Positions 1 to 51,988 of a stretch of 64,000 bases of DNA are shown here, piece by piece. Source of the DNA: Quercus robur (Eukaryota; Streptophyta; Magnoliopsida; Fagales; Fagaceae); assembly GCF_932294415.1 (NCBI RefSeq), contig NC_065535.1, positions 15,290,282-15,354,281 on the forward strand, in the 5' to 3' direction. The translations under genes were made by a program, and so were the position numbers. The notes beneath the pieces are model-generated. The model ran no database searches. It was not told the origin of the DNA and worked only from the letters and a program-made list of their open reading frames with translations. The stretch's first letter is position 1. Each line of letters opens with the position of its first letter.

Positions 1-1
1 G

Positions 2-1129
2 TTGTCTGAGGAGCAAAAGTTATACAAACGCTCTTTCTTAGGGCCATACTTGCTTTGTGTCCATCCCGAGGCAGTGAAGCCACTTTTTGAGGAGTTACAT
101 AAAGGGATATATGGAAGTCATATAGGGGGCAGATCATTATCGCACAGAGCTCTCACCCAGGGGTATTGGTGGCCCAGCATGCAAAAAGAGGCGTAAGAAT
201 ATGTTAAGAAGTGTGATCAATGCTAGAGATTTGCTCCAAACATTCACCAGCTTGGGGGAGTACTTAATCCTCTGTCTAGCCCATGATCATTTGGTCAATG
301 GGGCCTGGATATTGTGGGACCATTCCCCAAGGCTGTGGGAAACCAAAGATGGCTTTTAGTTGGAACTAATTACTTCACAAAGTGGGTCGAAGCTAAGCCA
401 TTGTCCAACATTAGAGATATTGATGCAAAGAAGTTTGTTTGGAAGAATATTGTAACTCGATTTGGAATTCCTCATACCCTCATCTCGGATAACGGGCTTC
501 AGTTTAATAGTAAAGCCTTCAGGCGATATCGTTGTGAGCTGGGCATTAGGAACAGATATTCAACCCCGGCCTATCTGCAAGGAAATAGACAGGCTGAAGC
601 AATCAATAAAGTCATAGTTAATGGACTTAAGAAAAGGTCGGATGAAGCAAAGGGTAGATGGGTTGAAGAACTGTCACATGTTCTTTAGACATATCAGACA
701 ACTCCTTGTCGATCAACTGGGGAAACACCTTTTTCAATGACATATGGGTCCGAGGCTGTGGTCCCTTTAGAGACTGGGTTTCCGACGCTAAGGACAAGCT
801 TGTTCATCCCAGACAATAATGATTAATTACTAGAAAGGATTTTGGATTTGGTCGATGAATGAAGAGAAGCAGCCATGGTACAACTGGCACATTATCAGCA
901 AAAACTTAAGTAGGGATATGATAAAGGTGTGAGGGCTAGACCATTGGCACCGAGTGACTTGGTGTTAAGAAAAGTAGTGGGGACTGCAAAGAACCCATCT
1001 TGGGGAAAACTAGGTCCCGATTGGAATGGGCTATATCGCATCACCTCAGTGGCTGGTATAGGAGCTTATTTTCTAGGAGATTTAGATGAAAATGTTGTAC
1101 CACGTCTGTGGAATGTAAACAATCTTTGA
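2..1129 (+). pseudogene. Ty3/gypsy retrotransposon integrase fragment (dead)
   Basis: One reading frame runs through the whole stretch and encodes the end of a gypsy polyprotein. It has an HHCC-type zinc-binding region (H near GSHIGG, then CDQC), the integrase core with the first Asp in GLDIVGP, the second in ISDNG and the Glu in RQAEA, and a C-terminal chromodomain-less tail ending near WNVNNL. Seven in-frame stops interrupt it (194, 224, 284, 686, 824, 860, 911) but there is no frameshift, and the natural stop is at 1127-1129. Integrase inserts the cDNA copy into host DNA; this copy cannot make the protein. The upstream pol domains lie outside the window. The order pol, spacer, antisense ORF, LTR downstream fits the Tat/Retand branch of Ty3/gypsy (inference). 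Confidence 0.9.
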
Positions 1130-1202
1130 AGGTATTATTATTAATGAAAGGCAATCTCACCATCTTTTGTTTTGACTATTATGTGATTTAATCTTATTCA
1201 TC

Positions 1203-1436
1203 TAAGTGTTAAACAGAACCTTAATTATGTTTGGTCCCTCGGACCACGTACCTTAGGTAAATTAATGTTTTTTACTTTCCTAAGTGTTAAACAGAACCTC
1301 AATCATGCCTGGTTCCTCGGACCACATACCTTGGGTAAATTAATGTTTTTGACTTTCCTAAGTGTTAAACAAAACCTTGGTCATGCTTGATTCCTCGAAC
1401 CACATACCTTTGATGAATTAATGCTTTTTACCATTA
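1203..1436. repeat. three 78-bp tandem repeats downstream of integrase
   Basis: Units begin TAAGTGTTAAACA at 1203, 1281 and 1359, spaced exactly 78 bp apart. The first two are close; the third has diverged. Each holds a CCTCGRACCACRTACCTT core. They lie in the spacer between the integrase end and the antisense ORF region, where Tat-type elements often carry tandem repeats. Confidence 0.85.
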
Positions 1437-2043
1437 ATGGATAACAAAGACTCTAAATGCAACACCCTAATTGAAGAAATCTCCATGAGCATCACTTAAA
1501 ACATTTGAAAGTATATCTATAAAATATTCTTTGGTGATAAGCATAATTTCATTATGCATTGCTCCTCAAATTTCATACTTTGAATGCATTGACATCACTC
1601 ACTTGATCCAATTTCAAGTACATAGGTGCTCTCTTAAATATGTCTTTTGCTTTGTTGCTTGGGTATTGATGAATGTACTGGAATAATTTGGGGCCAATTG
1701 ATAATCTTTGGGAATTTACAAGTTATTTTTATACATTTAGATGTAGCCATGATTGAGATAAGGTTGATAACAATGTGTATTATACTTGAAAAAAAAAAAA
1801 AAAAAAAAAAGAGAGAGAGAGAAAAGGGATTAGAATAGTAGCATATGCCTTGAAGTAATTAAAATTTTTCATTAAGTAAAGCTGAGACTTTTCATTGGAT
1901 CACAGAATCTTCCCTTAGGAAAAAACAAAGAGGGTACAATACACTTGGTATTACTTCCTTTCTAGAAACAACATGTTAAAAAAAATTTAAAAAAAAAAAA
2001 AAAAAAAAGCAACTGAACAGGTACAGGATAGAATGGTAATGCC
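1437..2043. other. retrotransposon spacer, no gene seen
   Basis: AT-rich spacer between the 78-bp repeats and the antisense ORF. It holds poly(A) tracts near 1790-1810 and 1978-2008. No coding signal was seen on either strand. It is most likely internal, non-coding retrotransposon sequence. Confidence 0.5.
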
Positions 2044-4093
2044 CTAGTTAACAGTGGATTGGGGGGGGGGGGGGTCTCCTTTAGCCCCTGACTGGGAGGA
2101 GGGTTCAAGTGCTTTGCTTTGAGTTGCCTCCTTCTCTTCGGAAGCCTTTTGGGTTGTTGATAGAGGTTTAGTTTGCTCAAGCGCTTTGCCTAGGGCTACC
2201 TCTTTCTTCTGAGAAGCCTTTTTAGGCATTGGTGGAGGCTTAGTTTTTTCAGGCACTGTATCTTTGGCTGCTGCTTTCTCCTCGCCTTTTGAGCTTACCC
2301 TTTTGGACTCCTTAGAGGTCTCTGAAGTGGTTGGAAGGGTACTAGCATAAGCAGGCTGGGCAGGTTTAGGCGCTTTAGGAGCAATGACCACCTGTGAGCT
2401 AGGTTGAATTGCTACACACAAGGCTGAGGGATAGAAGATATTCTATGTTCTCCTTAACTCTGAAGAAGCACTCACCTCGGCCAAGTTCAATGCCTCGGTC
2501 CATACTTGAAGGCAGTAACCTCGGCAAACTCTTATGACCTGGGCCCTCAGGATGTCTTCAGTCTCTTTTACCCCAATGTCATAACCATTTTGCTCGGCCA
2601 GAGCTGTAGCTTCCTCTACCTTCTCCATTTCTTTTTTCTGAGCTTTTATTTGCTCTTTAGCAATCGTAAGCTGCTCCTCGGCTTTACACAATTGCAAGCA
2701 TTGGTCCTTAGCCTGCTTCTCAGCACCAGCTCGTACAATTTCAGTGCGTTTCCTCTCCCTATCTGCCTCGGTCAGCTTGGTGACAAGGTCTTTTATTCTT
2801 TTCTCCACTATAGCTAAAGTTTGGATAGCAGCAATACGCCTTGCCTTCTTATCCTTTAACTGAGCGTGGGCATCATCCACCCATTCCTCAGTGATGTTTG
2901 TTGCTTGGATGGCCTAGAAGAAAGCAAAACAGTGAATCCTTTAAATAAGACAAAGTATCTATTTATGTAGCGATGACGGTGAAAGAAAGGTGTATATATT
3001 TAATATAAAAGGTGAAACGAAGGGAATCAATAGCTAAGTCTGTCTTTAAGGTCAGGAACACCTCATGCTTCTTGAGAGTTCTCAGGTCAACCATGTCCTG
3101 AGGCAGAAGTAGGGGTTGTTCCAGTACTTTGGCCACATAACCAGCCTTGCCCTTCTAGAAGTCCCTAATGGAGGAGTCCAAGGGGAGTGGGGTTCCGTTC
3201 AGTACAAGTGATGGGTTCTAAGTCGGAATCCTGAGGCGACACTCAAGCATTCTCTCCATGTCTGTACCCTCAGTCGAGGTCTTCCTTTGTGCCCCTTTGG
3301 CAATTTTTGCCCCTTTTTGAGGTTCAATCTCTTTGGAATAAGCAACCTCACCTTCCTCGGACACATCCTTCCCTTGTTTATCCCTCTTCCTCTTCTTGTC
3401 TGCTGGCTGGGAACGAAAGGCATGGGTGGGAAGGGGGGTGGGGGGACGGGTTTAGATAGCCACCTCGTGAGCAGACCCTCTAGCATGTGACTCTAATAAT
3501 TTGAGGAGGCTAGTGTTCTTCTTCCTTTGGAGCACCATGGCTTCAGGAACGTTGAATGGCTCTTGGTTGCTACTTACTTGAGCAGAGGGTAGGTGGGAAA
3601 AGGAAGCGTGTGGAGACTTGGCAGGGGGCGATTGATCAAGAACCTCGAAGTCTTCTTCAGATTCTGTGACCTCAATTAGTTTGAATGTCTCTTCTTCCAA
3701 AGCGCGATGTGAAGAAGTTGCTTCTTCCCTAGTTACACGTTGAATGGGCAACTCAATTTTTTGAGTGCTTTTAGGTGGAGGACTAACGAGGAACCTAGGC
3801 ACTGCAATGTTAATCTGTTGTAATCAGGGGTCTTTCGCCTTAATTACATACTTCGGGGACTGAAAGTTTGTTGATATTAGCTTGTACCGAGGATGACGTG
3901 GGCGGCTCGCAATTGTCCATCCGAGTGGAGGAAAATCTCGGATTGGAGTATCCTGGTAAAATCGAGCTCGTTAATGAAGCTAAAATTAGGGGTTGTGAAA
4001 TTTTTGTCTGCAAAAATCCAAGAAACAAAAGTGTAATTAGAGAAAGGGTTCAATAAACAAAAAGAAATAAAATTTTGAACCTAAGAAAAAAAA

Positions 4094-4124
<31 letters not shown>

Positions 4125-11604: not shown

Positions 11605-11612
11605 GAAGGTGG
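11605..11612. repeat. 8-bp target-site duplication, left
   Basis: GAAGGTGG, repeated exactly at 15821-15828, brackets the autonomous-type hAT element. Confidence 0.95.
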
Positions 11613-11630
11613 CAGTGGCGGCGCCACGTA

Positions 11631-11664
11631 CAGGTCAGGGTGTTCCCAGGAACACCCTGACCTG
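11631..11664. repeat. subterminal palindrome of the hAT element
   Basis: Two perfect 16-bp arms (CAGGTCAGGGTGTTCC and its complement) are separated by 2 bp, 18 bp inside the left end. The arm sequence GGAACACCCTGA recurs near the right end, so it may be a transposase binding site (inference). Confidence 0.85.
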
Positions 11665-12424
11665 AAAAAAATTAAAAAAAAAAAAAAAAAATTTATATTT
11701 AATCTATGCTAGGAACACCCTCATCCCATAATTAGGAACACCCTGAATCAAAAAATTAGGAATACCCTCAAATTAAATAATTAAAAAAAAAATTTATCTG
11801 TCCTACTTTCAAGCCAAAAAAAAAAAAAAAAACCCAAAAAAAAATTTTGAACTAAAATCTGAAAAAAAAAAAAAAAAATTTGTTAACAGAACCAAGCCCA
11901 CTGCCCACGGCAAGCCAAGCCCACGGCAAACCCGGAAAGCCCAACATAATACGGAGGTAGCAAAACCCATGGATTCTCACCCAAAAAAAAAAAAAAAAAA
12001 AAAAAAAATCAGAGAAAATCAGAAATCAAACCACGGTCACGTCGTTGGCAGAGATCAAGACAGCCTATACTCTATACAAAGCCAAAACAAATCAAACCCC
12101 ATTACCCAACACTGCAATACAGTCATACAGAGGCGTTTATCAAAAAAAAAAAGAAACCAAATACAGAGCAAAAGAGAAACAAAATACAGAGCAAAAAAGA
12201 AACCCCAAACCCAGAGCAAACCAAACCCACGGTGGCGCCTAGTGGCAGCTCGCAGGCGCAGGCGCAGCTCGCTCGCTCCGTGACCTCCGCCGCTCCTCGT
12301 CTAGTCGTCGTCGCTCGTCGCCCGCCGTCGTCGCTCGTCGCTGGCCCGTCGTCGCAGATCAGAACGGTCTCACCGTCTCAGCTGTTCCGCCGTCGTCGCT
12401 TGCCCGTCGCCAGTCGGCCTCAAG

Positions 12425-12450
12425 GTATTTCTCCCCCTTTTTCTCTCTGA

Positions 12451-12487
<37 letters not shown>

Positions 12488-13336
12488 TGAAATGCAAACC
12501 GTGAAATGATAAAATGCAAAAGTCTGATGCCTCTCTCTCTATTTATTCTAGTCTTTAAGTCATTATCTCTCTCTCTCTCTTTTGAAATTTGAACTGGAAT
12601 AATCTGATTGGCTGGCTGTGCCAGTGTGCCGAATCTTTACTCTTTCTTTTTTTTTTTTTCTTTTTTTTTGGGAACCAATCTTTACTTTTAACTTTATTTT
12701 GTTTTTTTGTCTGTTTTTTTGGCTTTATCTTATAGCTTTATTCGTTGCTTTTGTCTGTTGGGCAGTGATTCAGTGTGTTGCTGATTAGTAATATGTATTG
12801 TGATTGTGAAATTTTCTGATTGGCAGGTTGTGATTGGGGGATGATTTGTGCTTGTCTGTTGAGTGGGGTTGAGTGGGGTAGGGATAAATGGGCTGATAGG
12901 CAGTGGGCACATGGGGCCGGACAGTAAATGATAATTAAAGCAGTGTAATGTGTTGCACATTACACTGCTTTTATTATGCTGCACATGATATGTATAATGT
13001 TTAGCTCTTTTAGTGTAATGTGCACAAAGAACTAAACAATATAACAAATTAAAGTAATATAATTAATAACAAATAAATTAAAGTAATATAGTTTATTGTT
13101 ACGCTAAACAATAATAATTAAAACAGTATAATTAATCAATGTATTATAAAAGACAAATAAATTAAATTATGTTAGGCTAAATAATAATTAATAATTTTAT
13201 AATTAATGAAACAATAATGTAACAAATTATAGTTTATAAAAAACAAATAAATTAATAAAACAACTAAACAATAATAATTAATAATTTTATTAATATTTCA
13301 AATAAACTTATAGTTTTTTGTTTATTCTTTTGCTAG
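12425..13336 (+). other. intron in the 5' leader of the hAT transposase gene
   Basis: The donor CTCAAG/GTATTT follows a GC-rich leader, and the acceptor TTTTGCTAG lies 4 nt before the transposase ATG. A (TC)n run (about 12457-12482) and AT-rich repeats fill the intron. A leader intron of this kind would leave the coding exon whole. It is predicted from splice-site fit only. Confidence 0.55.
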
Positions 13337-13340
13337 AATT

Positions 13341-15695
13341 ATGGACAAATATTTGATAAGAAAACCACGTACCCAAGATTCAGCTCCTGCACAAGATTCA
13401 TCTTCATCTTCTAAGCGAGTTCGTGTTGACTTTAACTTAGAGAATCTTCCTTCAGATCCTGGGCTACGAGAAAAAATATCATCTTATCATCCTAATCATC
13501 ATGATGAAATAAGAAGATATTATTTAACAAAAGGCCCTTGTCAACCTGTTTTACACAGTGATGATTACCCTATATCTTTTTTTTCTGGAAAGCCCCGTCG
13601 ATTTTTATCCAAATGGTATAAAGATAGATGCTGGTTGGAATATAGTATAGACAAAGATGCAGTATTCTGTTTTTATTGCTACCTATTTGGACAAGACGTT
13701 GGTAAGCAAGGGGGAGGTGACACTTTTGTAACGAAGGGATTCAAACTTTGGAATCAGAAAGATAAGTTAAATTCCCATGTTGGGGGAGTTAATAGTGCTC
13801 ATTACCAAGCTGTCAAAAAGGGTAATGATTTGTTGAATGAAAAGCAACACATTCAAAGTGTTTTTGTTAAGCAATCAAATCAAGATAAAATTGACTATCG
13901 GATTCAATTAAATGCAATAGTTGATTGCATAAGATTCCTTTTATGCCGAGGATTAGCTTTTCGTGGTCACGATGAATCTCAAGATTCAAGTGATAAAGGA
14001 AATTTCCTTGAGCTTGTACAATTTTTGGGGGATCACAATGAATCTATCAATGAAGTGTTGCAAAAAGCTTCGAAAAATTGCAAGCTTACCCACCCTGACA
14101 TTCAAAAAGATATTGTGAATGCAATTGCACGTGAAACATCCAAAGCCATCATCAAGGATCTCGACAATGGGTTCTTTTCAATATTAGTTGATGAGTCACG
14201 TGATATCTCAGTGAAAGAACAAATGGCCCTCGTTCTTCGTTATGTGAACAAAGAAGGAATTATTATAGAGCGATTCCTTGGTATTGTACATGTAGCAAGT
14301 ACTACCGCTTTGTCACTCAAGCATGCTATTGAATGTTTACTTTGTGAACATAATTTGAGTTTATCGAACCTACGTGGGCAAGGTTATGACGGGGCTAGTA
14401 ATATGCAAGGTGATATCAATGGTCTCAAAACTTTAATTTTGAAAGAGAACAAGTCAGCATTTTATGTCCATTGTTTTGCTCATCAACTTCAATTGACACT
14501 TGTTGCTGTTGCTAAAAATCACATTAACATTGCTGAATTTTTTTATGTGGTTAGTAATTTAGTAACTGTTGTTGGAGGCTCTTGTAAGAGACGAGATGCT
14601 CTTCGAGATACACAATTTGCCAAGATTAAAGAAGATTTAGAGAATGGTGTACGTAGAAGTGGGCAAGGTTTGAATCAAGAGACAAATCTTAAACGTCCTG
14701 GTGATACACGTTGGGGATCATATTATGGGACCATTCTCAGTTTGATTTTGATGTTCTCTGCTGTTGTTGATGTACTAGAGATTATTGAAGAAGATGGCCT
14801 CTCCGACCAAAAAGTTGAAGCTCGATCTATTATGAGGTCAATTCTTTCTTTTGAATTTGTCTTTGCTCTACACTTGATGAAAAATATTTTAGGGATCACA
14901 AATGAGTTGTCAATAGCATTACAAAAAAAAAATCAAGATATAGTAAATGCTATGGATCTTGTTAAAGTGTCTAAGCAACGGTTGCAAGTGATGAGAGATG
15001 ATGGATGGGCATCTTTATTGGCTGAAGTATCTTTATTTTGTACCTCACATGATATTCCTATCTTGGACATGGAAGTGATATTTGTAGTTAGTGGGAGGCC
15101 GCGACGCAACACCCAACAAAATACAAATTTACATCATTATCGTGTTGAGCTATTCTACACAGTCATAGATATGCAACTTCAAGAGCTTAACAACCGTTTT
15201 TCTGAAGCGAATACTGATTTGCTACTTTGTATGGCTTGCTTGAATCCAAGTAATTCATTTGTGGCTTTCGATAAGGAAAAGTTGATACGTCTAGCTAAGT
15301 TCTATCCCTCTGATTTTCTTGGGACAGATATTTTGGCACTTGACTCTCAACTGCAAAATTATATTTTTGATATGCGCAGCAATGACTTCTTTTTAGAGCT
15401 TCAAGGAGTTAGTGAACTTGCTGAAAAGTTAGTGAGCACAAGAAAACACGAGACTTATCCATTAGTCTATTTGCTAGTGAAGCTAGCTTTGACCCTTCCA
15501 GTTGCTACTGCAACAGTAGAAAGAAGTTTTTCAGCAATGAAATATGTAAAGAATGAACTGCGCAATCGAATGGGAGATCAATGGATGAATGATTGCTTGA
15601 TTGTGTATATTGAAAAAGATGTAGCTTGTAGCATTGATAATGAGACTATTATGCAACGATTTCAAAATATGAAAACTCGTAGAAAGCAATTGTAA
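13341..15695 (+). CDS. hAT transposase (TTF-type zinc finger, DUF4371, hAT dimerisation domain)
   Basis: A 784-aa uninterrupted ORF, a cut-and-paste transposase of the group often annotated as TTF-type zinc finger or ZMYM1-like protein. An N-terminal basic stretch is followed by the TTF zinc finger around residues 85-160 (W..R.WLEY..., CFYCYLFG). Next comes the DUF4371/RNase H-like core (about 200-400), with LVDESRDIS carrying the first catalytic Asp and GQGYDGASNM the second. The C-terminal dimerisation domain (about 690-770) has ATATVERSFSAM, which supplies the expected Glu, and ends in a run of short helices. The ATG at 13341 opens MDKYLIRKPR, the usual start of this family, and lies just after a good splice acceptor. 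No frameshift or stop is present and all three catalytic acidic residues are there. It is expected to act in the nucleus on its own element ends and possibly on related MITEs. Confidence 0.95.
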   Translation: MDKYLIRKPRTQDSAPAQDSSSSSKRVRVDFNLENLPSDPGLREKISSYHPNHHDEIRRYYLTKGPCQPVLHSDDYPISFFSGKPRRFLSKWYKDRCWLEYSIDKDAVFCFYCYLFGQDVGKQGGGDTFVTKGFKLWNQKDKLNSHVGGVNSAHYQAVKKGNDLLNEKQHIQSVFVKQSNQDKIDYRIQLNAIVDCIRFLLCRGLAFRGHDESQDSSDKGNFLELVQFLGDHNESINEVLQKASKNCKLTHPDIQKDIVNAIARETSKAIIKDLDNGFFSILVDESRDISVKEQMALVLRYVNKEGIIIERFLGIVHVASTTALSLKHAIECLLCEHNLSLSNLRGQGYDGASNMQGDINGLKTLILKENKSAFYVHCFAHQLQLTLVAVAKNHINIAEFFYVVSNLVTVVGGSCKRRDALRDTQFAKIKEDLENGVRRSGQGLNQETNLKRPGDTRWGSYYGTILSLILMFSAVVDVLEIIEEDGLSDQKVEARSIMRSILSFEFVFALHLMKNILGITNELSIALQKKNQDIVNAMDLVKVSKQRLQVMRDDGWASLLAEVSLFCTSHDIPILDMEVIFVVSGRPRRNTQQNTNLHHYRVELFYTVIDMQLQELNNRFSEANTDLLLCMACLNPSNSFVAFDKEKLIRLAKFYPSDFLGTDILALDSQLQNYIFDMRSNDFFLELQGVSELAEKLVSTRKHETYPLVYLLVKLALTLPVATATVERSFSAMKYVKNELRNRMGDQWMNDCLIVYIEKDVACSIDNETIMQRFQNMKTRRKQL

Positions 15696-15828
15696 ATTCT
15701 ATGTATTTGTGTATTTTTTGATTGTTGTTGTTGTCAATATATAAAATTTTCTTTTTATTAGATTGTGTAATTTATGCTTATTGAGGAACACCCTGAAAAT
15801 ATTTCCTGGAGTCGCCACTGGAAGGTGG

Positions 15829-17340
15829 TATTAAAAATTTTCTTAAGTATACCTGCTAACAAAACCAATTTAGTGTGACAAATATGACTAATGATGAAAC
15901 TAAAATTGTCAGTCGTTGAAGTCGTCCAGATAGCCCTGGTGCAACTTGCAAGAACACAAGAGAAGGTAGCAAAATGGGTCACCAGTGTGGTGCTGCCGGC
16001 AAGCCTCCGATGATAAAGTTAGAATGAGAGAGAGAATTGGAATGTTTTTAGCTGGTAAGAATGAGTTCAAATCTTCTGTATCACTCTCCCTATTCCACTC
16101 TATACTCCACAAATAAAAATTTGACACATGTCTACCTATTTAATTAAATGCTAATTTTTTGCCTTTTTATATTCCAAATTTTCAGTTTCCTAAAAAAAAT
16201 TTAAAACAAAAAACCAACACATGTTCAACGACCACCATCACCGGTCCAACCAGCAGAGTGAGAATAGTAATAAGGAAATCAATCAATTCCTTGCCTGCTT
16301 CAGCGAAGAGCACTTGGTGTCTCTTTTTGTCAATCAAAAGCTTCAAGCTTACCTTAGTGGCTGCCATGTTTTGTATGCTGCTTAGAGCATTTACCTTAGT
16401 GGCTAACTTAGGTCCACCGTAGTGGCTACCTTAGGTCCACATCTCAGCCGCCAGGTCCACACCAACACATGGTTTTGTTGTGTTTATTTTGTTGTGTGGC
16501 ACAGTGCTTCGTGGTTTTCTATTCTTGAAAATTTTCAGTTTCTGTGTGCTGATTGATTAATTGTGGTAATCAAAGTACGGACAAAAGGTTACGCACTGAC
16601 TTGTACCAATTTGGGGTTAAGTATCTGGTAAATTTTTGATGGATTGTTTGTTGGTGGTGACCGGTGAAGATGTGTTGGTGTTTTTTTTTTTTTTTTTTGG
16701 GTAACTGGCTAGCCGGCTAAGGTGTGGACCTGGCGGCAGTAGTGGATGGCCAATGACAATGTTGGTGATCTCTTTTTAGTGGAGCCGGCGAAGTTGGTGG
16801 TGGACCGATGCTGGTGGCCGTTGAACAAGTGTTGGTTTTTTGTTCTAATTTTTTAGGGAACTGAAAGTTTGGAATAAAAAAAAGGCAAAAAATTAGCATC
16901 TAATTAAATAGGTAGACATGTGTCAAATTTTTATTTGTGGAGCATAAAGTGGAGCAGAGAGAGTGGTACAGAAGATTTGGACTCGGTAAGAATAACTCTG
17001 TATTTGTATCATTTACCTTTGGTGGTGCGTGGTATTTATAGGTTTTCCTTCTCCTAACCGTTGGAACCACCATTAATAGTGGTTTAATTCTCTTCTTAGG
17101 TAACGTTCTTGGCATTCAATGTAGGGGAGATGGAATCTCTTGACACCTAATACTTGAATATAGGAGCCTCTAAACTGTAGCTTTGTTTCGTCCAAACCGT
17201 AACGGTTCTACTAATAATGGTGACATTTATGGCTCGTTCCTCATCCTTAGTTGCTTCGAGACGAACGATTCCATCGGGCTTATCAACTAACATCAACTAA
17301 ATGAAGACAACTGCCCCTTTATTTCCTAGGTACTTTATTA
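15829..17340. mobile_element. LTR remnant split by a Mutator-like element
   Basis: 15880-16053 and 16994-17340 read as one LTR-like sequence once the 922-bp element between them is removed. It contains CGTCCAGATAGCCCTGG, a GTCACCAGTGTGGTG stretch, CCTCCGATG...AAAGTTAG, a TATA-like TATTTATAGG and CCGTTGGAACC. The same order of motifs recurs at about 28640-29000, so this is a repeated LTR family (probably Ty3/gypsy). No internal coding region is attached. Confidence 0.55.
16063..16984. mobile_element. non-autonomous Mutator-like element (922 bp), long TIRs, perfect 9-bp TSD
   Basis: The first roughly 190 bp (GAGTTCAAATCTTCTGTA...) is an inverted copy of the last 190 bp (...TACAGAAGATTTGGACTC). 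Identical 9-bp duplications GGTAAGAAT lie at 16054-16062 and 16985-16993, the size made by MULE transposases. The middle holds repeated TTAGGTCCAC and AGTGGCT words and a poly(T) tract, with no transposase. It sits inside an older LTR. Confidence 0.92.
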
Positions 17341-25819: not shown

Positions 25820-26892
25820 GACTTGGAAATTGATGCACTCCAGTCAAATGTTTTTGCTAAATGAAGTGAATCAAAGACTAAGAAACTAATCTTTCTAAGT
25901 ATTTTTTTTTTTTTAGAGAAATCTTTCTTTCTTAGTATTTATTAGATAGAAGACTAAGAAACAACATTAGTACAATGTCAGGGCCTTTCAAAAATAAAAA
26001 TAAAAAGTACAATGTCAAGGCGTGGAAAACGAAACAACCTTGTTAGTTGCATTACTTTACCTCTATAGGATATACTGACCAGATTAATACGTGATGTAAT
26101 TATCATTATTATTATTTCTAATCCGTAGTGTGTAATTGTGGCTAGTGAGAATGAGAAGGAAACAACAAAAATTATCTTTCCTAATGTTAGCGACGTTTCT
26201 CAAAAATCTAAGCTGAAAAAGAAGCATAAATTTAAAAATTAATCAATATTTGATGCACTCCAGTCAAATGTTTTTGCTAAAGGAAGTGAATCAAAGACTA
26301 AGAAACTAATCTTTCTTAGTATTTACTAGATAGAAGACTAAGAAACAGCATTTAGTACAATGTCAGGGCGTGGAAAACGAAATAACCTTTTTAGTTGCAT
26401 TACTTTACCTATACTGACCAGATTAATACGGTGTGTATCATTATTATTATTTCTAATCCGTAGCGTGTAATTGTGGCTTGTCAGAATGAAAAGGAAACAA
26501 CAAAAATTATCTTTCCTAATGTTAGCGACGTTTCTCAAAAATCTAAGCTGAAAAAGAAGCATAAATTTAAAAATTAATCAATATTTGAAGCACATTAATG
26601 ATCTTTCTATAATTTAAATATGGGAAATACCCATAAGACACTCATTAATAATCTATTTTAGAACCTCTGATAGGATATACTGACCAAATTAATACGTTGT
26701 GTAATTATCATTATTATTATTTCTAATCCGTAGCGTGTAATTGTAGCTTGTGAGAATGAAAAGGAAACAACAAAAATTATCTTTACTAATGTTAGCGACG
26801 TTTCTCAAAAATCTAAGCTGAAAAAGAAGCATAAATTCAAAAATTAATCAATATTTGAAGCACATGAATGATCTTTCTATAATTTAAATATG
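25820..26892. repeat. three imperfect tandem copies of a 270-430 bp unit
   Basis: The block CTGACCA.ATTAATACG... TCATTATTATTATTTCTAAT ... GTTAGCGACGTTTCTC ... AAAAATTAATCAATATTTGA occurs at about 26070-26250, 26410-26585 and 26680-26860. The upstream block GATGCACTCCAGTCAAATG occurs at 25831 and 26251. Copies two and three also share a following stretch with ATTAATAATC. Pairwise identity is clearly high. There is no coding signal, so this is a local segmental tandem duplication. Confidence 0.85.
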
Positions 26893-27063
26893 AGAAATGC
26901 CCTTAGGGCACTTATTAATAATCCATTTAAAAAAAGTTTTTATAGGAAATGAAAAAAAAATAATTAATATTTTGACAGCTTTTTTTATTTTCCATAAAAG
27001 TGATAACAAAACTTTCCTAAAATAGATTATTAATGAGTGCCCTTAGAGTACTCGTTAGCATAA
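26893..27063. repeat. MITE-like inverted-repeat element B1
   Basis: The left end ATGCCCTTAGGGCACTTATT and the right side AATGAGTGCCCTTAGAGTAC are inverted copies, with AT-rich DNA between. Total length is about 170 bp. A related, more diverged copy is at 30008-30179. Confidence 0.6.
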
Positions 27064-34713: not shown

Positions 34714-37700
34714 CTAGTGTTGTGGGAAATTATTCATTGGATCATCACGCTGGAATCTCTTCATCCTGTAAGCCTCCATTTGCTCAGGTGTAACCTGCAA
34801 TTGATCATACAATGGTGAGAAAATCCACAAGAAGCTAGACAAACAATCCAGCACTTGCTTTTTTTCTTCTTCTTTCCTTTCAAAAATAATCTAGCAGTTG
34901 TTCATAATTCTAAATTTAGCACTTCATTCAACCATGGAATTTTAAAGATCTTACCTCATCATTCCATGTAACATTATATTTGCGCTTTCTCTCATCTTTC
35001 TCTTCTCTCTTTCTTTGATCCTCCTGTCAAAGCCAAACAAATTTTAGAATTGAATAGTGTACAAGTGAAGCAATGTTCATCAACTAATCTAACTACAAAT
35101 TTAAATGTACGACTCTGAAGTCTACCAAGCTCAACTCAAAAAATTGGATGGCAGAGAAAATTTAAGCTGTTCATACCAACAATTCATGCCCTTACTAGAT
35201 ATAGATTGCCCCTAATCTGTTACAAACGCCTACCTACATACCACCTGAGCTATACCAAGACCCTAATAAGAGTTATAGGCTGTTCGATCAAATTAGGGAA
35301 ACTCAATGGAATTCATAACCGTTTCAACTTTTTTTTTTCTCTTTATTTTGATTGCCTGAATATTCAAGAGCTAAAAGACCATTCCTTCTCACCAATATGA
35401 GATGGGTTGCAGCTATAGTCAGAAGTCCAACTGGGCCAATTGTGTGTGTGCGCGTGTGTATATATATATATATATATAACTCTTATTAGGGTCTTGGTAT
35501 AGAGAAATTACAAACACCTACCTCCATACCACCTGAGCTATACCAAGACCCTAATAAGAGTTTTATAATGGTTAGAAATCCTACACTACCACTCAAACAC
35601 ATTCCCCCACCCCCTGAACCCCAAGCTCTAAGACTTGGGGAGGTAACATCCCGCAAACAGGCAGGTATCCCTAATTAGAATTATATTAAAGAAGAAGTAG
35701 AAGTACAAAAGAATATTAAGAACAAGAGGAAGATAACAAAAATAAAACTTAGACCCTCTGTCACCTTTTTAAGTGCTTCTGCAAGTAATTTCTCATCCAA
35801 AACCAAGTCATCTGGGATTTCTGTTCCCCAAGTAGCCACCCTTTTCTCCTCCAGTAGCGTAGGCGTCTCTGTTTTCAGGTTCAAGATACAATGTCAAGTT
35901 AGATCATATACCATGGCCTTTTAAGCAGCAATAGAACAAATTGAAAACCAACACAAATTTGCTTTCTATTTCAGAAAGAATATTACAAGGAAAAGACACA
36001 GAAAAAGCCTAAATCTAATACACACCTTCAGTAGCTTCTTTCCGAGCAATATTAGCCTTCATAAGATCCGTTGCAGCCTCAGCAGCCTCTATTCCAGCAG
36101 CACCAGTGCAATAGCTGTTCCGGATTATCTGCTTGCAGCACTTGTAGCCCCATTGGTGATCCTTCCACCATGAACCCCATACACTTGTGTGGTTGTTAAT
36201 ATAAACATCTTCTTCATACTTGCTTCTGGGAAGTGCCTTCTCCTGCAAAAGCAATAAAGCATGCTACGTAAGTATGCAAGAAAATATAACATAAAAGACC
36301 AACTTTCTTTTGTAATTGAGAATTTTACTATCTAATACAAAAAATCAGAATTTCAAGACCAACAATGCCAATGAAAAGTATTCATTGCCTTAGATACAAA
36401 CACCAAATAAAATAATTAATCTCACTGAAAACAACCATAGAACAGTTCAAAGAGGCAATTCATTCTAAAAATCCTAAAACATTGTACATTAGATCATGAT
36501 CCCAGATCTAGATCCATGTCATAGCCACTGAATTACCAAGAATTTAAACCCAAAAACAATTTGGAGCAAAATATTCCCAAGGCAAACACTCCATATTGCC
36601 GCCTATCAGAGACTTGACAAGGTGATCAAAAAGCGTGGAACAAACTCATGTCCAAAAAAGCTATACATATTGCAGACCTTAATCATGCATTTCACAACTA
36701 AATGCTAGACATCAACATTGTTCAGAAACCCATGGCTCTTCATTCCAATCATCTTTTGCTCATCAAAAGTTCAAGTTTAAAACTTAAGAGAGTAAGTTAT
36801 AAAACTAAGTAAACCATTGATACACATCATACCTGCCCCTTTATGATTCTGCCGGCACGATCATATTCAACTTCTCTTTCAGTCTGTCCTAGTAGAAGCT
36901 CCCTTGGAAGTTCTCCTTCAGTAGCTGCGTTTCCATACTTCTCCAAGATGTCATCTTTTGTTTGGGACTTCAGCTTCTCCTTAATGACCTTATAATTTTT
37001 ATAAAGCAACTCAGCTTGGGATGGAGCTGCTTGCATGTGCATGTCTTGTCCCTTATCAAATGCTTCCCATGAATGAATGTTAAGCTGCTTAAACTCCAAA
37101 GCTTCACCACTATTCCTATATTGATTATCTCCCTATAATAAAAGAGTCAAAGAAACCAAAGTGAGATAAATACATATTACAAACTTGCAAAAACTGCACC
37201 CAAAGAATTCATAATACAATATCTAATCTTCAAAGAAACCTACCCCGTAGAACTTCTCATTTGGATCTGCATCTGGGAGAGGATCTTCACGCATGGACCG
37301 GGTTTTGGGATCATAATGCGCAGAGTTGACATCAAGATTCAACAGATATTTTGCGGTGTCCTCCCGAATACGCAAGTTCCTGAAAAATATATACTTCAGA
37401 ATAGTAACATACAACATCCAACCCACAGGTGGGAATATATTTCTACATAGTAGTATACAAGACCAGCAAGCACAAAAAGAAAGCATTTATTTCCATCTTC
37501 CATTAGAATGGCATTAAACTGGTGGAAATAGAAGGGAGCTCTGACCTGACAGTTCCTGTGCTTCCACCACCTGTTGTACGCACACGCTTTTCAACCTTTG
37601 CAAAGTCCATTTGTTTGCTCTCATCAACCTTGGCCTCATCTACCCTTAGATCATCTTCATCATCATCCTCATCACTGATTCCAGCTTCACCAGCTTCACC

Positions 37701-39405
37701 ATCTTCACCATTTTGGTTATTGTTTTTTTCCTCAAGTTTCTTAAGCTGCTGGTCCTTCAGGAATTTCCTTCGAGCTTCATCTCTTGCTTCGTATCTCTCA
37801 ATGACACGGGAATAGGTAGATGCATCATAGCCATTCCATCGGTCCCGTTTGCCATCATAGTCAAGCTCAAAGGTCTCTATTTTTTCATCAGGTGCAATGT
37901 GTTTGCTCGTCCACTTTGCCCCTACTTTACGGGGCCTTTCCATACATGCCTTTGAATCGTGAGTCATAGCTCCACAGCTGTTGAGAAGCAATTAAAAATA
38001 TTATTACCCCACATATGCAATAAAGAAAAAAAAAAAAGAATAACATGGGCTTTCTTTTTTATGGTAAAAAAGGGATGGTAAAAGATCCAACTAGTCAATT
38101 TTGTGGCATTACCACCACCAATAGACCTCTACAGGACGCATAGCTAGTCTAAGTTTTTCTTATTCCTCCTTTAGCTGTTGATTGCTATCTGACTTGAGTT
38201 TAGGAAATATGTTGATTCTTAAATGTGGGAGTACATTGGCTGGTGGGTGGGAAAGAGAGAGAGAGAGAGTTCACTTACTTTTCACATGCACCCTTCCTGT
38301 ATTTGTCAGCCTGGTAAATTTTGGCACCTCTGTCATACCATGATTTTGTATAATTAGGATCTGATTTCCACTTCCTTTGATGTTTTAAACTCTGAAATTC
38401 AAATAACAAATACAGAGCATTACAATTTTTGTTTTTGTTTTTACAAGTTATGCACCAGTCCAAACAATAAATCAGGGAAGACGAAGAAGTTATGCAAGGC
38501 AGTCATCAAAACGATAGATGTACTTACAGGTCTCTCAGCATTGAGATACCAAGGTGCAGATGACATATACTGCGGAATATGAGGATTGATCTCCTTTCCA
38601 TCCTCATCAACCTCAGCTGGTGCAAGCCCAGCTTTACGTGCTTCTTCTAATTCAATTTGCTTCCTATGGTCCTCCCTCGATTTAAATGCAACTGCAACCC
38701 CATAAAACAACAACAACAACAAAACCTTAGTCCCAAGTTTTAGGGTCGGCTATGGATATATACAAACATATTTTTCAATGATTAAAAATGTTCATCACTC
38801 ATCAGCTGCCAATAACGAAATACAACACTTTCACAAAACAATGAATTGAAAACCTTAGTCCCAAGTTTTAGGGTCGGCTATGGATATATACAAACATTTT
38901 TTTAATGATTAAAAATGTTCATCACTCATCAGCTGCCAATAACGAAATACAACACTTTCACAAAACAATGAATTGAACAAAATACCACAAATTTGACAAT
39001 GTAGCAAAGAAATCCAATTTATCACAATCTATTTCAATGCACAACCAATAGGCATACCAATACTGCAAAATTTCTCACTCGTTTGCAAGCCAAAACAAAA
39101 GCTGGCTTTACCCCCAAATACTGTTAAAATAAAAATGGAACAATCCCAAAAAAAACCCTAACCCTAAGGAAGACATAAAAGATGTAATTTCGGTTCCAAA
39201 ACGATCAAATTCAATGAAATAAAACCAATCCCCAAAACAAACCCTAACCCCAAAAAGTCGTACAAGATGTAATTTCGGGCCCCATAACGATCAAATTCAA
39301 AGGAATAATAGCAGGCAACAAGGTGAATCAAACGAATCAATCAGAACAATCTAAAGAAACAGAAGCGGGGAATTGAAAATAACAAGTACCTGAAGCGGTC
39401 GCCAT
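34714..39405 (-). CDS. SLU7: pre-mRNA-splicing factor SLU7, ten coding exons, 543 aa
   Basis: Exons: 39405-39390, 38691-38528, 38391-38279, 37977-37546, 37379-37244, 37132-36833, 36242-36026, 35868-35765, 35023-34955 and 34794-34714. All have GT-AG borders, and together they make 1632 nt or 544 codons, close to the usual plant length of about 535 aa. The start is MATAS, with the first intron after 16 coding bases. Features are [23 protein letters not shown], a CCHC zinc knuckle (C96, C99, H104, C109 in [14 protein letters not shown]), an acidic stretch of Asp/Glu, the conserved [12 protein letters not shown] and [14 protein letters not shown] blocks, and a C-terminus ending NNFPQH. SLU7 acts in the nucleus in the second catalytic step of splicing and helps 3' splice-site choice. 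No lesion was seen. Intron 1 carries telomere-like AAACCCTAA words (near 39163 and 39240), which are common in plant housekeeping genes. Confidence 0.97.
35220..35563. repeat. direct repeat plus 25-bp hairpin in SLU7 intron 8
   Basis: A roughly 56-bp sequence ending CTATACCAAGACCCTAATAA occurs at 35220-35274 and again at 35508-35563. Just before the second copy, at 35479-35503, lies a perfect 25-bp inverted copy of its end. This makes a hairpin (35479-35563) with a loop of about 35 nt. A (TG)n(TA)n run at 35441-35478 abuts it. Confidence 0.85.
38701..38976. repeat. tandem duplication (about 126 bp x2) in SLU7 intron 1, with SINE-like word
   Basis: 38723-38850 and 38851-38976 are near-identical. 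Each begins AACCTTAGTCCCAAGTTTTA followed by GGGTCGGCTATGGAT. That word, here preceded by (CAA)n, resembles the tRNA-related part of plant SINEs such as Au in reverse orientation (recalled similarity, not checked). Confidence 0.8.
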
Positions 39406-47378: not shown

Positions 47379-47914
47379 ATATGTTTTTGTAAGAGTATGA
47401 TGCAAGGTGGCAAAACCCGTTCTTTTATTTAAATTTGATGTGTCACATTATTATTGATGGGTGTAAGTCCCCTTTTGGCCTTTTACAACAAATCCAGATG
47501 GGATTTAATTAAAATTTTTAAAAAAAACTTTACTGAATTTTATTTTGTTGGCTATGATGCAATGGATATAGGATAGATGCAAGTGAGATTGTTGTAATTC
47601 TTCTTCCATAGCATCTAACCGTTTTTTAATCTCAATTTTATACAACCGTTTTTTCTTTCGATTTTTCAAGTTTAGACTTATTTTATGGCCATCCTTTCTC
47701 CACTGTATCGTGTATATCACATTTAGTACATGTTGATATTATTGATTAACTAAAATCAATGAGCATCAATTGTCCTTGAAACATACAAAAACTGTCAAAA
47801 CATCAGTTTTTTTATATTTAAATTTACCATAAAAAATTTTCAAAAAATATTTCCTAGATCAATACTCTTAAGGCATCTGATAACTCTTAGTTCCTATATA
47901 TACCATACTTATGA
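47379..47914. other. intergenic AT-rich DNA, no gene seen
   Basis: A minus-strand ORF of 71 codons at 47505-47720 has no recognisable motif. Confidence 0.4.
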
Positions 47915-48630
47915 TTTGTTGTTAAAAAAATTCTAAAATTCTAAAGATGTATAGCTATTAAGGGCATTCCATTATGGACAGAAGTAGTATTAATCTTTTG
48001 GCATTCATCTTTGTTGTTCGTTGCCATTGCCAGCATTTTGCACAATTCATTCCAAAATTATGAGACATTAATTGACCTTGGTTTTAGTCCAATTAAAGGA
48101 TTCTTGAAGTAAACTTTAATTCCTATATATAGCCTACTTAGGATTTCCTGAAAATTGCAATTTTGAATAGTAAAGATGGTGCTGAAAGCATTTTGTGTGC
48201 GGATGTAAGCAAAAAGTCAAAACACATAATTCTCCTTGCTTCTACTATCTCCTTCCCACTTTCCATCTTTTGATTTGTTGTTAAAAAAAATCTAAAATTG
48301 TAAAGCTGTATAGCTATTAAGGGCATTCCATTATAGACATAAGTTGTATCCATCTTTTGGCATTCATCTGTTCGTTGCCATTGCCAACATTTTGCACAAT
48401 TCATTCCAAAATTAGGAAACATTAATTGACATTGGTTTTAGTCCAATTAAAGGATTCTTGAAATCAACTTTAGTTCCTATATATAGCCTATTTAGGATCT
48501 CCTGAAAATTGCAATTTTGAATGGTAAAGATGTAGGTGCTAAAAGCATTTTGTTGTGGATGTAAGCATAAAGTCAAAACACATAATTCTCCTTGCTTCTA
48601 CTATTTCCTTCCCACTTTCCATCTTTTATT
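47915..48630. repeat. two tandem copies of a roughly 355-bp unit
   Basis: 47915-48270 and 48271-48630 align along their length: both start TTGATTTGTTGTTAAAAAAA, both include TATTAAGGGCATTCCATTAT and CACATAATTCTCCTTGCTTC, and both end in CTTCCCACTTTCCATCTTTT. Non-coding. Confidence 0.88.
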
Positions 48631-48849
48631 TTCTTCTTTAAATTCTAACATCTACGGTCTACCACAAATAACTTAAGTCATTGGATATAGCAATGAGAAA
48701 TTTTTATTGGGACAAGTCTGGGACAATCAGTAATTTAACATGGTATTAAAACAAGAGCTCTTAAGTACGATCATTGTCTCCTTCACTCTACTTTCCATTT
48801 AAATTTTCATGTGTTGGGTCTCACCTATTAAAAGGTAGTTTCGACCTAT

Positions 48850-50162: not shown

Positions 50163-51964
50163 ATGGCTGGCCCTATTCTCTCTAGAGAGGAAGAAGCAGA
50201 GTTAGCTCGCAGTAACAAAAAAGTGAAAAATGTTAGTCACGCCGGATTCGAGGACCATATGAGGGAAGGCCTGACATCCTTTCCTTTGAACTCAGGGGTA
50301 GCTAGACACCCTCTGTCCTTCAGGGATAAGCTTGTAGGAGAAATACCCGATGCGTATGTTCAAGCTTTTAACTTCTCTGAACTAATGGAGGCAGACAAGG
50401 ATTCAGACTCTGAGAGTTCCGATCTTAGAGAGGGCCTTGTTGCTGTTCCGTTCTCTAAAGAGCTCAAGAACCGTATTCGGTCTCCATGGAGCAAAAGTCT
50501 TATTGTCAAAGTCTATGGGAGAACTGTTGGGTTTTCTTTCCTCCATGGCCGCTTACTGTCATTGTGGAAGCCGTGGGGAAGCTTGACTGCGTGGACCTTG
50601 GTAAGGAGTTTTTTCTAGTCCGATTCTCTGTCAGAGAGGACTGTGAGGCTGTGCTTAGAAATGGTCCATGGTTTATAGGAGAAAATTTTCTTTCCATTAG
50701 GCCATGGGAACCAAACTTTAATCCAGCAGAGGCAAACATCTCGTCGGTTGCCATTTGGGTGAGGTTGAATGAGCTCCCCATTGAATATTATCATGTAGAA
50801 GCTCTCCAACTCATTGGGAATGCGATTGGCAAGGTGTTAAGAATAGATACAAATACAACTAATGAGTCTAGGGGACGGTTTGCTCGCCTATGTATTCAGG
50901 TGGACGTTGGTAAGCCGCTTACCACAGCGCTTCTCATTGGTGGAAAGGAACAACCTGTGTGTTATGAAGGAATACAGAGACTATGTTTTTCTTGCGGAAG
51001 AATTGGCCACCGACGTGAAAATTGCCCTTTTGTTGTTCGGAAATATGACTCTCAGGCGAGGGAGACTGATGAAAATAATGGTACGCCGATGAACCAAGAC
51101 GACGTTGTGCATGCTCCTGAAAATGTAGGTACCACGTCGGGCACGTCCAAGGACAAAGGAGCGTACGAGTGTATGGCAGGCGAGGATGAGTTGGTGGACA
51201 ATGCCAAGGACATTTACGGTCCGTGGATTATGGTGACACGCAAAAGGAATGGGAACAAGGTGACAAAGCAAATGGTCCCCACTGATCAAAGCACTCTAAG
51301 GATGAAAGGGGAAGAAAAGTTTGGGTCTAATATACCAACCCTTAGGGAAGGCAAGAGGAAAGGGGCCACAGAAGTTAACCCATTTGAGGCCCAAATGGCC
51401 AATGCGGTCCAATCAATCTCCAATGGGCCGAAGCATACATACCATAATCAAGGACAGCCCCACGTGGTTAACAACAGCCCAAGAACTGAGTTAAGCCCCT
51501 CTGTTAGGGGTAAGAAAGGAATGGCCAGAAATAGGGCTTCCTTAACTTTGACTAAACAAGCGACATCCAACTTTGCAATCAAAGGAGCGGTCACTAATGC
51601 AAAAATATCCTCAGTAGATAATCCGTGTGCAAATGGGAATGAAACTTTCAACTTCAAAGCCAAGTCTGTTGGGCAATCTTCAAGCTCTAGTTCTAATGGC
51701 CAACAAAACCGTTCTTGTCAAGAGGAGATGCAACCAAAAGATCAAGCGGACATGGAAGCTAGAGCTTGCTCTGTTATGGTGGAAAGTGGGGAAGATGAGT
51801 TTTCCCATGCCAAAGCTAACCCAGGAAGGGCGGAGCTCATGGCAGGAGGCCAGAATGCGAGTGGGAGTATCATGGTGGAGAAGGAGAGGCCGGGTATAGG
51901 CCATGGTGCAGCTGAGCAGATGGATTTTGAAGAAGACAAAGGAGTGGGCCCTCCCTCCAGTTGA
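50163..51964 (+). pseudogene. LINE ORF1: DUF4283 and zinc-knuckle RNA-binding protein, one frameshift
   Basis: The reading frame opens at MAGPILSREEEAEL (50163) and enters the DUF4283 domain (RIRSPWSKSLIVKVYGRTVG). It loses one base near 50577 in CCGTGGGGAAGC, after which the domain continues in another frame (KLDCVDLGKEFF) through GPWFIGENFLSIRPWEP to a CCHC knuckle CFSCGRIGHRRENC and a long polar tail ending at 51964. Apart from this single lesion, about 600 residues are intact. In L1-type plant elements this protein binds the element RNA. The annotated 492-aa ORF starting at 50486 has a false start inside the shifted region. Confidence 0.88.
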
Positions 51965-51988
51965 GGATCTTCTGTTGTCTTTCGTTCC

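What the first reader, a model, noticed from the sequence alone, without database searches (positions are those of the whole stretch)
11605..15828. Complete hAT transposon with intact transposase and unblemished target duplication
Identical 8-bp duplications, matching terminal repeats, a subterminal palindrome and an uninterrupted 784-aa transposase retaining the DESRD Asp, the GYDGASN Asp and the VERSFS Glu are all present in one locus. Surrounding elements are mostly broken, so this is the best candidate here for an element that is or was recently active, and it could supply transposase to small relatives.
Basis: partly seen in the sequence, partly recalled or inferred. Interest (0 to 1): 0.7.

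Follow-up and report, generated by a model that had tools for sequence, protein, structure and literature searches.

The report
Young Tip100-like jumping gene in plant
This is an intact cut-and-paste transposon of the hAT (Tip100-like) kind, with near-identical intact copies elsewhere in the same plant genome and shorter copies that have lost the transposase gene, so it was probably active recently, but it is a new member of a well-known group.

Summary
Window 11613-15820 is a 4208-bp element between perfect 8-bp duplications (GAAGGTGG), with 14-bp imperfect terminal repeats, a 34-bp subterminal palindrome and an uninterrupted 784-aa transposase (Pfam DUF4371 + Dimer_Tnp_hAT) that keeps D284, D350, R457, W458 and E727.

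The window's own 786-Mb plant genome was searchable. Two other full-length copies differ at 6 and 8 of about 4200 sites. Six copies found keep the whole frame at 98-100% identity. Well-separated intact pairs show purifying selection on the transposase (dN/dS 0.22-0.40); pairs of broken copies give 0.44-1.13.

At least 21 copies with the same ends are 1.0-2.1 kb long. Six short copies share a single deletion junction, so they multiplied without their own transposase. One has a related empty site with a single target copy.

This is a recently mobile autonomous/non-autonomous hAT family, built like morning-glory Tip100: a new member of a known kind. Present activity, transcripts and polymorphism are untested. 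Exploratory side results: a sister family has the same doubled-motif palindrome in a different sequence; the palindrome centre is rearranged in several copies; target preference looks unlike Ac or Buster.

The parts
11605..11612 (.). left target-site duplication GAAGGTGG
   Evidence: read directly; identical to the right copy
11613..15820 (+). complete hAT element, 4208 bp
   Evidence: ends and duplications; 8 of 9 other full-length copies start at the same first base and all 9 end at the same last base (L009 has lost its first base)
11613..11626 (+). 5' terminal inverted repeat CAGTGGCGGCGCCA
   Evidence: 12 of 14 bases match the 3' end; 126 genomic matches of the 31-base end, control 0
11631..11664 (.). 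subterminal palindrome, 16-bp arms, 2-base centre; contains the motif TCAGGGTGTTCC and its inverse
   Evidence: 93.6% of cells paired across 51 distinct 5' ends
11648..11768 (+). subterminal repeats AGGAACACCCT (11648, 11711, 11734) and AGGAATACCCT (11758); likely transposase binding sites (inferred)
   Evidence: a further copy near the 3' end at 15784
12425..13336 (+). putative 5' leader intron (GT...AG), untested by RNA
   Evidence: sequence; spliced frame checked
12931..12977 (.). imperfect 47-bp palindrome inside the putative leader intron
   Evidence: 89% self-complementary
13341..15695 (+). transposase ORF, 784 aa: DUF4371 (aa 127-361) and Dimer_Tnp_hAT (aa 701-760); C110, C113, H146 and H154 look like a TTF-type zinc finger (label recalled)
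15784..15796 (+). 3' subterminal repeat AGGAACACCCTGA
15807..15820 (-). 3' terminal inverted repeat (reads CAGTGGCGACTCCA on the minus strand)
   Evidence: the 18-base 3' end occurs 369 times in the genome, control 0
15821..15828 (.). right target-site duplication GAAGGTGG

Best explanation
The element is a full-length, probably autonomous hAT transposon of the Tip100 type that moved recently in this plant lineage. The 784-aa transposase, made from an mRNA with a spliced leader (inferred), is expected to bind the AGGAACACCCTGA repeats and the terminal repeats, cut the element out as hAT enzymes do (established for hAT, not tested here), and insert it at a staggered 8-bp target. The same enzyme or that of a close sister lineage also moved internally deleted copies of 1.0-2.1 kb that keep both ends. 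Shown: insertion with 8-bp duplication, several near-identical copies, a selected transposase frame in the intact copies, and amplified deletion derivatives. Inferred: expression, DNA binding, catalysis, and activity today.
For: Near-identical copies on other contigs: L010 has 6 mismatches in 4198 aligned sites, L009 8 in 4201, L011 26 in 4158. A tblastn of the transposase scored 57 of 2032 candidate places: six give the full 784 aa without a stop at 98-100% identity, and the six other listed matches that cover residues 1-784 (73-93% identity) all have stops. In the ten aligned full-length copies the same six are intact. Both-sided duplications are 8/8 in 8 of 10 full-length copies and in 8 of 10 short copies examined. 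dN/dS in the 11 well-separated intact pairs is 0.22-0.40; five intact pairs were tested, four with Fisher p 8.6e-4, 1.4e-5, 0.023 and 2.4e-4, the fifth (L012-L017, 10 changes, 0.62) with p 0.35. Of 98 5' ends and 100 3' ends compared, 31 pair within 6 kb: 21 at 1035-2101 bp and 10 at 3994-4283 bp. Six short copies (L019, L021, L024, L025, L027, L028) share one filler-bearing junction and are 96.2-98.9% alike. L021 has a diverged empty site about 1 kb away with a single GATAGAGA.
Against: No RNA evidence and no second individual or species. The window's own empty site could not be searched. The short copies are only 80-83% like the window element over their 5' 1.7 kb by BLAST with gaps counted, so mobilisation by this exact subfamily is not shown. 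Of the listed protein matches most are broken or partial. dN/dS of three broken pairs that include L011 is also below 0.6 (0.44-0.58), so the intact/broken contrast is not clean. AlphaFold gave no usable model (mean pLDDT 31.8).
Confidence: 0.9

Rival explanations
1. The element is a recently silenced relic: it moved within roughly the last million years but is now inactive by methylation or subtle protein damage.
For: No transcript data. Three of the six intact copies carry 8, 16 and 19 amino-acid differences from the window protein. Most other listed copies are broken or partial.
Against: Window, L009 and L010 differ at 6-8 sites and encode the same or nearly the same protein, which is hard to reconcile with long silence.
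Confidence: 0.4
2. The ORF is a domesticated host gene rather than a mobile element.
For: Intact frame with dN/dS below 1.
Against: Six intact copies at separate places, terminal repeats at both ends and 8-bp duplications; domesticated genes usually lose their ends and stay single-copy (established knowledge).
Confidence: 0.02
3. The near-identical copies arose by segmental duplication or assembly artefact rather than transposition.
For: None found.
Against: The copies have different flanks and their own duplications: ATCTTTTT (L010), AGTTGGTC (L011), GTTACACT (L012).
Confidence: 0.02

Closest known systems
Tip100 of Ipomoea purpurea (hAT, Tip group)
   Same: Size class (3.8 kb against 4.2 kb), single long ORF (808 against 784 aa), terminal repeat CAGGGGCGGAG against CAGTGGCGGCG here (9 of 11). 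The sister family found in this genome has CAGGGGCGGAG exactly at its 5' end. Facts on Tip100 come from passages of PMC12511174.
   Different: Activity of Tip100 is reported in tobacco and medaka (passages); here it is inferred.
Maize Ac/Ds system
   Same: An autonomous element with 8-bp duplications plus internally deleted derivatives, some with filler DNA (PMC3260210, passages).
   Different: Different terminal and subterminal repeats (hexamers in Ac, as stated there); the filler in Ds2 is mostly from elsewhere in the genome, in group 1 here it includes nearby element sequence.
BuT2 of Drosophila (Tip group)
   Same: hAT with 12-bp terminal repeats, 8-bp duplications and short derivatives (PMC3942097, passages).
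   Different: 2.8 kb, five-exon gene, 643 aa, insect host.
Sister family L039-L041 in the same genome
   Same: 62% protein identity, open 775-aa frames from the first Met, perfect 8-bp duplications in 3 of 3, and the same layout of ends: a motif doubled into a palindrome near the 5' end and present once near the 3' end.
   Different: 3.36 kb; terminal repeat CAGGGGCGGAG; palindrome of different sequence with 10-bp arms; the RW motif was not found in L041.

Membership tests
hAT superfamily | 8-bp target-site duplication | tested here: met
   8/8 at the window locus; 8 of 10 full-length and 8 of 10 short copies perfect
hAT superfamily | terminal repeat pattern [T/C]AGNGNNG (PMC6027215, passages) | tested here: met
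   CAGTGGCG at both ends
hAT superfamily | five key residues D, D, R, W/F, E (PMC6027215 section 3.4) | tested here: met
   D284, D350, R457, W458, E727 by motif; no reliable alignment to Hermes was obtained
hAT superfamily | hAT C-terminal dimerisation domain | tested here: met
   PF05699 36.0 bits, cut-off 21.4
hAT superfamily | RNase H-like fold with inserted helical domain (recalled) | tested here: inconclusive
   AlphaFold model unusable, mean pLDDT 31.8; weak Hermes sequence hit E 0.04
Tip group (Tip100-like) of hAT | transposase groups with Tip100 in a tree | not tested
Tip group (Tip100-like) of hAT | Tip100-like terminal repeat CAGGGGCGGAG | tested here: inconclusive
   9 of 11 bases here; 11 of 11 at the 5' end of the sister family with 62% protein identity; short ends alone do not settle the group
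Ac group of hAT | target preference nTnnnnAn (recalled) | tested here: not met
   4 of 64 insertions against 9.9% background, i.e. no enrichment; small sample, weak test
Buster group of hAT | target preference nnnTAnnn (recalled) | tested here: not met
   5 of 64 against 7.4% background, i.e. no enrichment; small sample, weak test
active transposon | present-day excision or insertion | not testable with these tools
   no RNA, no second individual

The most novel reading that the evidence does not exclude
The 5' end may carry a hairpin-forming double binding site that works as a palindrome rather than as a fixed sequence. A sister family at 62% protein identity has the same layout (motif doubled into a palindrome near the 5' end, single near the 3' end) with a different sequence. 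The palindrome centre also looks like a hot spot: host flank plus about half of the palindrome is duplicated in front of two separate insertions (L015, L026), and L027, L030 and L070 are duplicated or interrupted in the same stretch. The centre occurs as CA and as its reverse complement TG in several subfamilies. If so, these elements have unlike ends by design and remodel them by template switching at the hairpin tip. Separately, the family may have its own target preference, roughly nCTnnAGn.
Probability: 0.25. Interest if true: 0.5.

Novelty: new member of a known kind. Interest (0 to 1): 0.33.

Why it matters
[quoted passage not shown] Here full-length copies with open frames and their deleted derivatives can be read side by side in one genome, which gives a ready test set for which ends the enzyme uses. 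The 64 insertions also bear on a question that the BuT2 paper left open (PMC3942097, passages): what target the Tip group prefers.

Tried and rejected
Structure: AlphaFold from three near-identical sequences failed (mean pLDDT 31.8, pTM 0.24), so no fold search was run. The Protein Data Bank sequence search gave only a weak Hermes hit (E 0.04) and weak hits to Poz1. Relatives in genome contigs and viral contigs: none confirmed by tblastn.

Module swap at the 5' end: the 3' search gave many more high-identity copies than the 5' search. I first put this down to faster divergence of the non-coding leader. The recount does not bear that out fully: in seven diverged copies the non-coding stretch 1401-1728 stays at 91-96% while 421-1200 falls to 48-90%. 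So exchange of the 5' leader, or special constraint on the end of the intron, remains open.

Captured host gene in the short copies: group 1 has about 57 bases of filler that include nearby element sequence; group 2 has roughly 200 bases before its 3' end that do not match the window element. I recognised no gene, but ran no protein search on them.

Palindrome covariation: 4 pairs change on both sides (shuffled mean 1.8; 38 of 500 shuffles as high) and 6 cells do (mean 2.0; 4 of 500), but sliding the partner by 3 columns also gives 4 pairs and 6 cells; inconclusive.

Empty site at the window locus: the joined-flank search did not complete.
Full report
OBSERVATION. The element is 11613-15820 (4208 bp) between identical GAAGGTGG copies. 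Its two ends agree at 12 of the first 14 bases; further in, both carry TCAGGGTGTTCC, from base 23 at the 5' end and base 25 at the 3' end. At the 5' side this motif is doubled into a palindrome (11631-11664, perfect 16-bp arms). Single AGGAACACCCT-type repeats follow at 11711, 11734 and 11758, and one lies at 15784. The ORF 13341-15695 has 784 codons without a stop and matches DUF4371 (252 bits) and the hAT dimerisation domain (36 bits, cut-off 21.4). The five key hAT residues listed in PMC6027215 (section 3.4) are present by motif: D284, D350, R457, W458 and E727.

THE GENOME. The window is C2:15290282-15354281 of a 785.7-Mb assembly in 42 contigs, a flowering plant by its gene and repeat content (inference). 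Searching it with the first 601 bases scored 40 of 873 candidates; with the last 608 bases, 40 of 1809. I fetched 20 loci from the first search, 10 from the second, three of a sister family and 40 short 5' ends.

NEAR-IDENTICAL COPIES. Of the first 20 fetched loci, nine match the whole element at 92.4-99.6% by BLAST (L009, L010, L011, L012, L015, L017, L018, L020, L026), seven are internally deleted, three belong to a second short group, and one (L022) matches only positions 1-3028 in the stretch fetched. L010 differs from the window copy at 6 of 4198 aligned sites and L009 at 8 of 4201, plus a few short indels in A, T and CT runs. With 1e-9 to 7e-9 substitutions per site and year (recalled, not measured for this plant), 0.14% divergence means roughly 0.1-0.7 million years. 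The flanks of the window copy, L009 and L010 do not match each other and the duplications differ, so these are separate insertions. L009 has lost the first C of the element together with one target base.

INTACT FRAMES. In the aligned set, the window, L009, L010, L012, L017 and L018 keep the full 784-aa frame; L011, L015, L020 and L026 do not (6 of 10). A genome-wide protein search scored 57 of 2032 candidates, so its counts are lower bounds. It lists the same six as stop-free full-length matches at 98-100%; six further matches over residues 1-784 have stops; a 62%-identical family has three stop-free matches over residues 18-784 and one over 141-784. The window and L010 proteins are identical; L009 differs at one residue, L018 at 8, L017 at 16, L012 at 19.

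SELECTION. Nei-Gojobori dN/dS was computed for all 45 pairs. Among the 15 intact pairs, 11 well-separated ones (13-35 coding changes) give 0.22-0.40; L012-L017 gives 0.62 from 10 changes; the three pairs among the window, L009 and L010 have 1-2 changes and say nothing. Of seven pairs tested, window-L012, window-L017, window-L018 and L017-L018 give p 8.6e-4, 1.4e-5, 0.023 and 2.4e-4; L012-L017 p 0.35; the broken pairs L015-L020 and L020-L026 p 0.17 and 0.68. The six pairs of broken copies give 0.44, 0.51, 0.58 (with L011), 0.70, 0.71 and 1.13; pairs of one broken and one intact copy give 0.23-1.34, the extremes all with L011. On the whole this fits a transposase selected along lineages that move and decaying in copies that do not, but the contrast is one of degree.

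SHORT RELATIVES. Seven of the first 20 loci lack most of the region from about 1728 to 4101 of the element and are 1750-1915 bp long. Six of them (L019, L021, L024, L025, L027, L028) share one junction: the sequence runs to GCTAGAATT, then about 57 bases of filler that include a copy of nearby element sequence, then the 3' part. Their mutual identity is 96.2-98.9%. L023 has a different junction and is a separate deletion. A second group (L013, L014, L016; 2022-2101 bp) is about 94.5% alike. Genome-wide, the 31-base 5' end with up to 3 mismatches occurs 126 times, 100 listed, and the 18-base 3' end with up to 1 mismatch 369 times, 100 listed. I left out two of the 100 listed 5' ends because they are the duplicated solo ends of L015 and L026. 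Of the remaining 98, 31 pair with a listed 3' end within 6 kb: 21 at 1035-2101 bp and 10 at 3994-4283 bp. No element below 1 kb appeared, but only part of each list was shown, so small MITEs are not excluded.

EMPTY SITE. Locus L021 carries a short copy in host sequence that is repeated about 1 kb away. The repeat (76% and 83% alike on the two sides) runs through the insertion point with a single GATAGAGA. This shows insertion with an 8-bp duplication for a family member. The same test at the window locus did not complete by the server.

MECHANISM. Shown: separate insertions, duplications, a selected frame, amplified deletion derivatives. Inferred from established hAT biology: transposase binding to subterminal repeats, excision, staggered insertion. 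Internal deletions with filler are also described for maize Ds (PMC3260210, passages); interrupted gap repair after excision is the likely origin (established idea, not tested).

COMPARISON. Tip100 of morning glory has 11-bp ends CAGGGGCGGAG, 3.8 kb and an 808-aa ORF (PMC12511174, passages). The present element matches 9 of those 11 bases. The sister family L039-L041 matches all 11 at its 5' end, is 3355-3363 bp long, has perfect 8-bp duplications in 3 of 3 and is 98.2-99.1% alike by BLAST. Its frames are open, but the RW motif was not found in L041. The Tip group was defined by a tree in PMC3942097 (passages); I had no Tip100 protein for such a tree, so I call the element Tip100-like, not a proven member. 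Six answered paper searches (listings seen) showed no description of this family in their listed titles and abstract starts; that is a weak negative.

SIDE RESULTS. (a) Palindrome: the sister family also has a subterminal palindrome, at bases 25-46 to 27-48 with 10-bp arms (2 of 2000 shuffles of L039 as long), different in sequence, and its half-motif recurs once near the 3' end. L015 repeats 15 bp of host flank plus the first 33 bp of the element; L026 repeats flank plus the first 34-36 bp; L027 repeats TCAGGGTGTTC; L030 has a T-run at the centre; L070 repeats part of its 5' end; L023 and L081 have lost part of the palindrome. L024 has a flank duplication that ends at base 4 instead, against the pattern. 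The centre TG occurs in L024, L028, L057, L060 and L069, but TA also occurs (L059, L062, L064, L067, L076), so stepwise mutation is not excluded. Covariation of the arms is inconclusive: 4 of 500 shuffles reach the count of doubly changed cells, but the +3 slide gives the same counts (66 ends aligned, 51 distinct; L029, L030, L031, L034 and L038 left out). (b) Target sites: the left 8 bp of 64 insertions show T3/A6 (60 of 128, expected 41, p 5.8e-4) and C2/G7 (39 of 128, expected 23, p 7.3e-4), from 16 symmetric tests without correction, against a flank background that is more AT-rich than the sites. The Ac pattern nTnnnnAn is at 4 of 64 and the Buster pattern nnnTAnnn at 5 of 64, neither enriched. 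For the 40 short 5' ends only the left side was seen; L009, L029, L030, L031, L033, L034 and L038 were left out. (c) In seven diverged copies the leader at 421-1200 is far less alike (48-90%) than the non-coding stretch 1401-1728 (91-96%); unexplained.

For that reason the probability of the novel case is 0.25 instead of 0.20. The draft's rejection of a 5' leader exchange was withdrawn.

VERDICT. An intact, recently mobile Tip100-like hAT family with its own deleted derivatives. It is a new member of a known kind.

Noticed in passing
L015:622-669; L026, L024 5' flanks; L027, L070 5' ends: Stuttered 5' ends: host flank plus the first 33-36 bp of the element is tandemly duplicated in L015 and L026, ending near the palindrome centre; L024 duplicates flank plus CAGT; L027 and L070 duplicate part of the end itself.
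   Followed up: partly
L039, L040, L041: Sister Tip100-like family (62% protein identity): three 3.36-kb copies with open frames, 98-99% alike, 5' end CAGGGGCGGAG, perfect 8-bp duplications, and a subterminal palindrome of different sequence; the RW motif was not found in L041.
   Followed up: partly
L029, L030, L032, L035-L038 against window 11613-15820: The leader at element positions 421-1200 is far more diverged (48-90%) than the non-coding stretch 1401-1728 (91-96%) next to the ORF; leader exchange or constraint on the intron end are both possible.
   Followed up: partly
left 8 bp of 64 insertions: Weak symmetric target preference nCTnnAGn; Ac and Buster patterns not enriched; exploratory.
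   Followed up: partly
L021:3380-3660: Paralogous empty site in a diverged repeat of the host sequence, with a single GATAGAGA.
   Followed up: yes
window 50163-56124: L1-type retrotransposon with DUF4283 ORF1, endonuclease, reverse transcriptase and RNase H-like segments; the second reading frame is interrupted between 53434 and 53770.
   Followed up: no
window 37503-37991: Minus-strand segment matching splicing factor Slu7 (Pfam PF11708, 61.5 bits); gene or fragment not determined.
   Followed up: no
window 12931-12977: 47-bp imperfect palindrome in the putative leader intron (CAGTGTAATGTG ... CACATTACACTG); possible remnant of a small nested insertion.
   Followed up: no
L033: Rearranged family members: two 3' ends facing outwards and a separate inverted 5' end.
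   Followed up: no
window 16063-16248 and 16801-16984; 47903-48642; 25830-26928: Local inverted and direct repeats seen in the window self-comparison.
   Followed up: no
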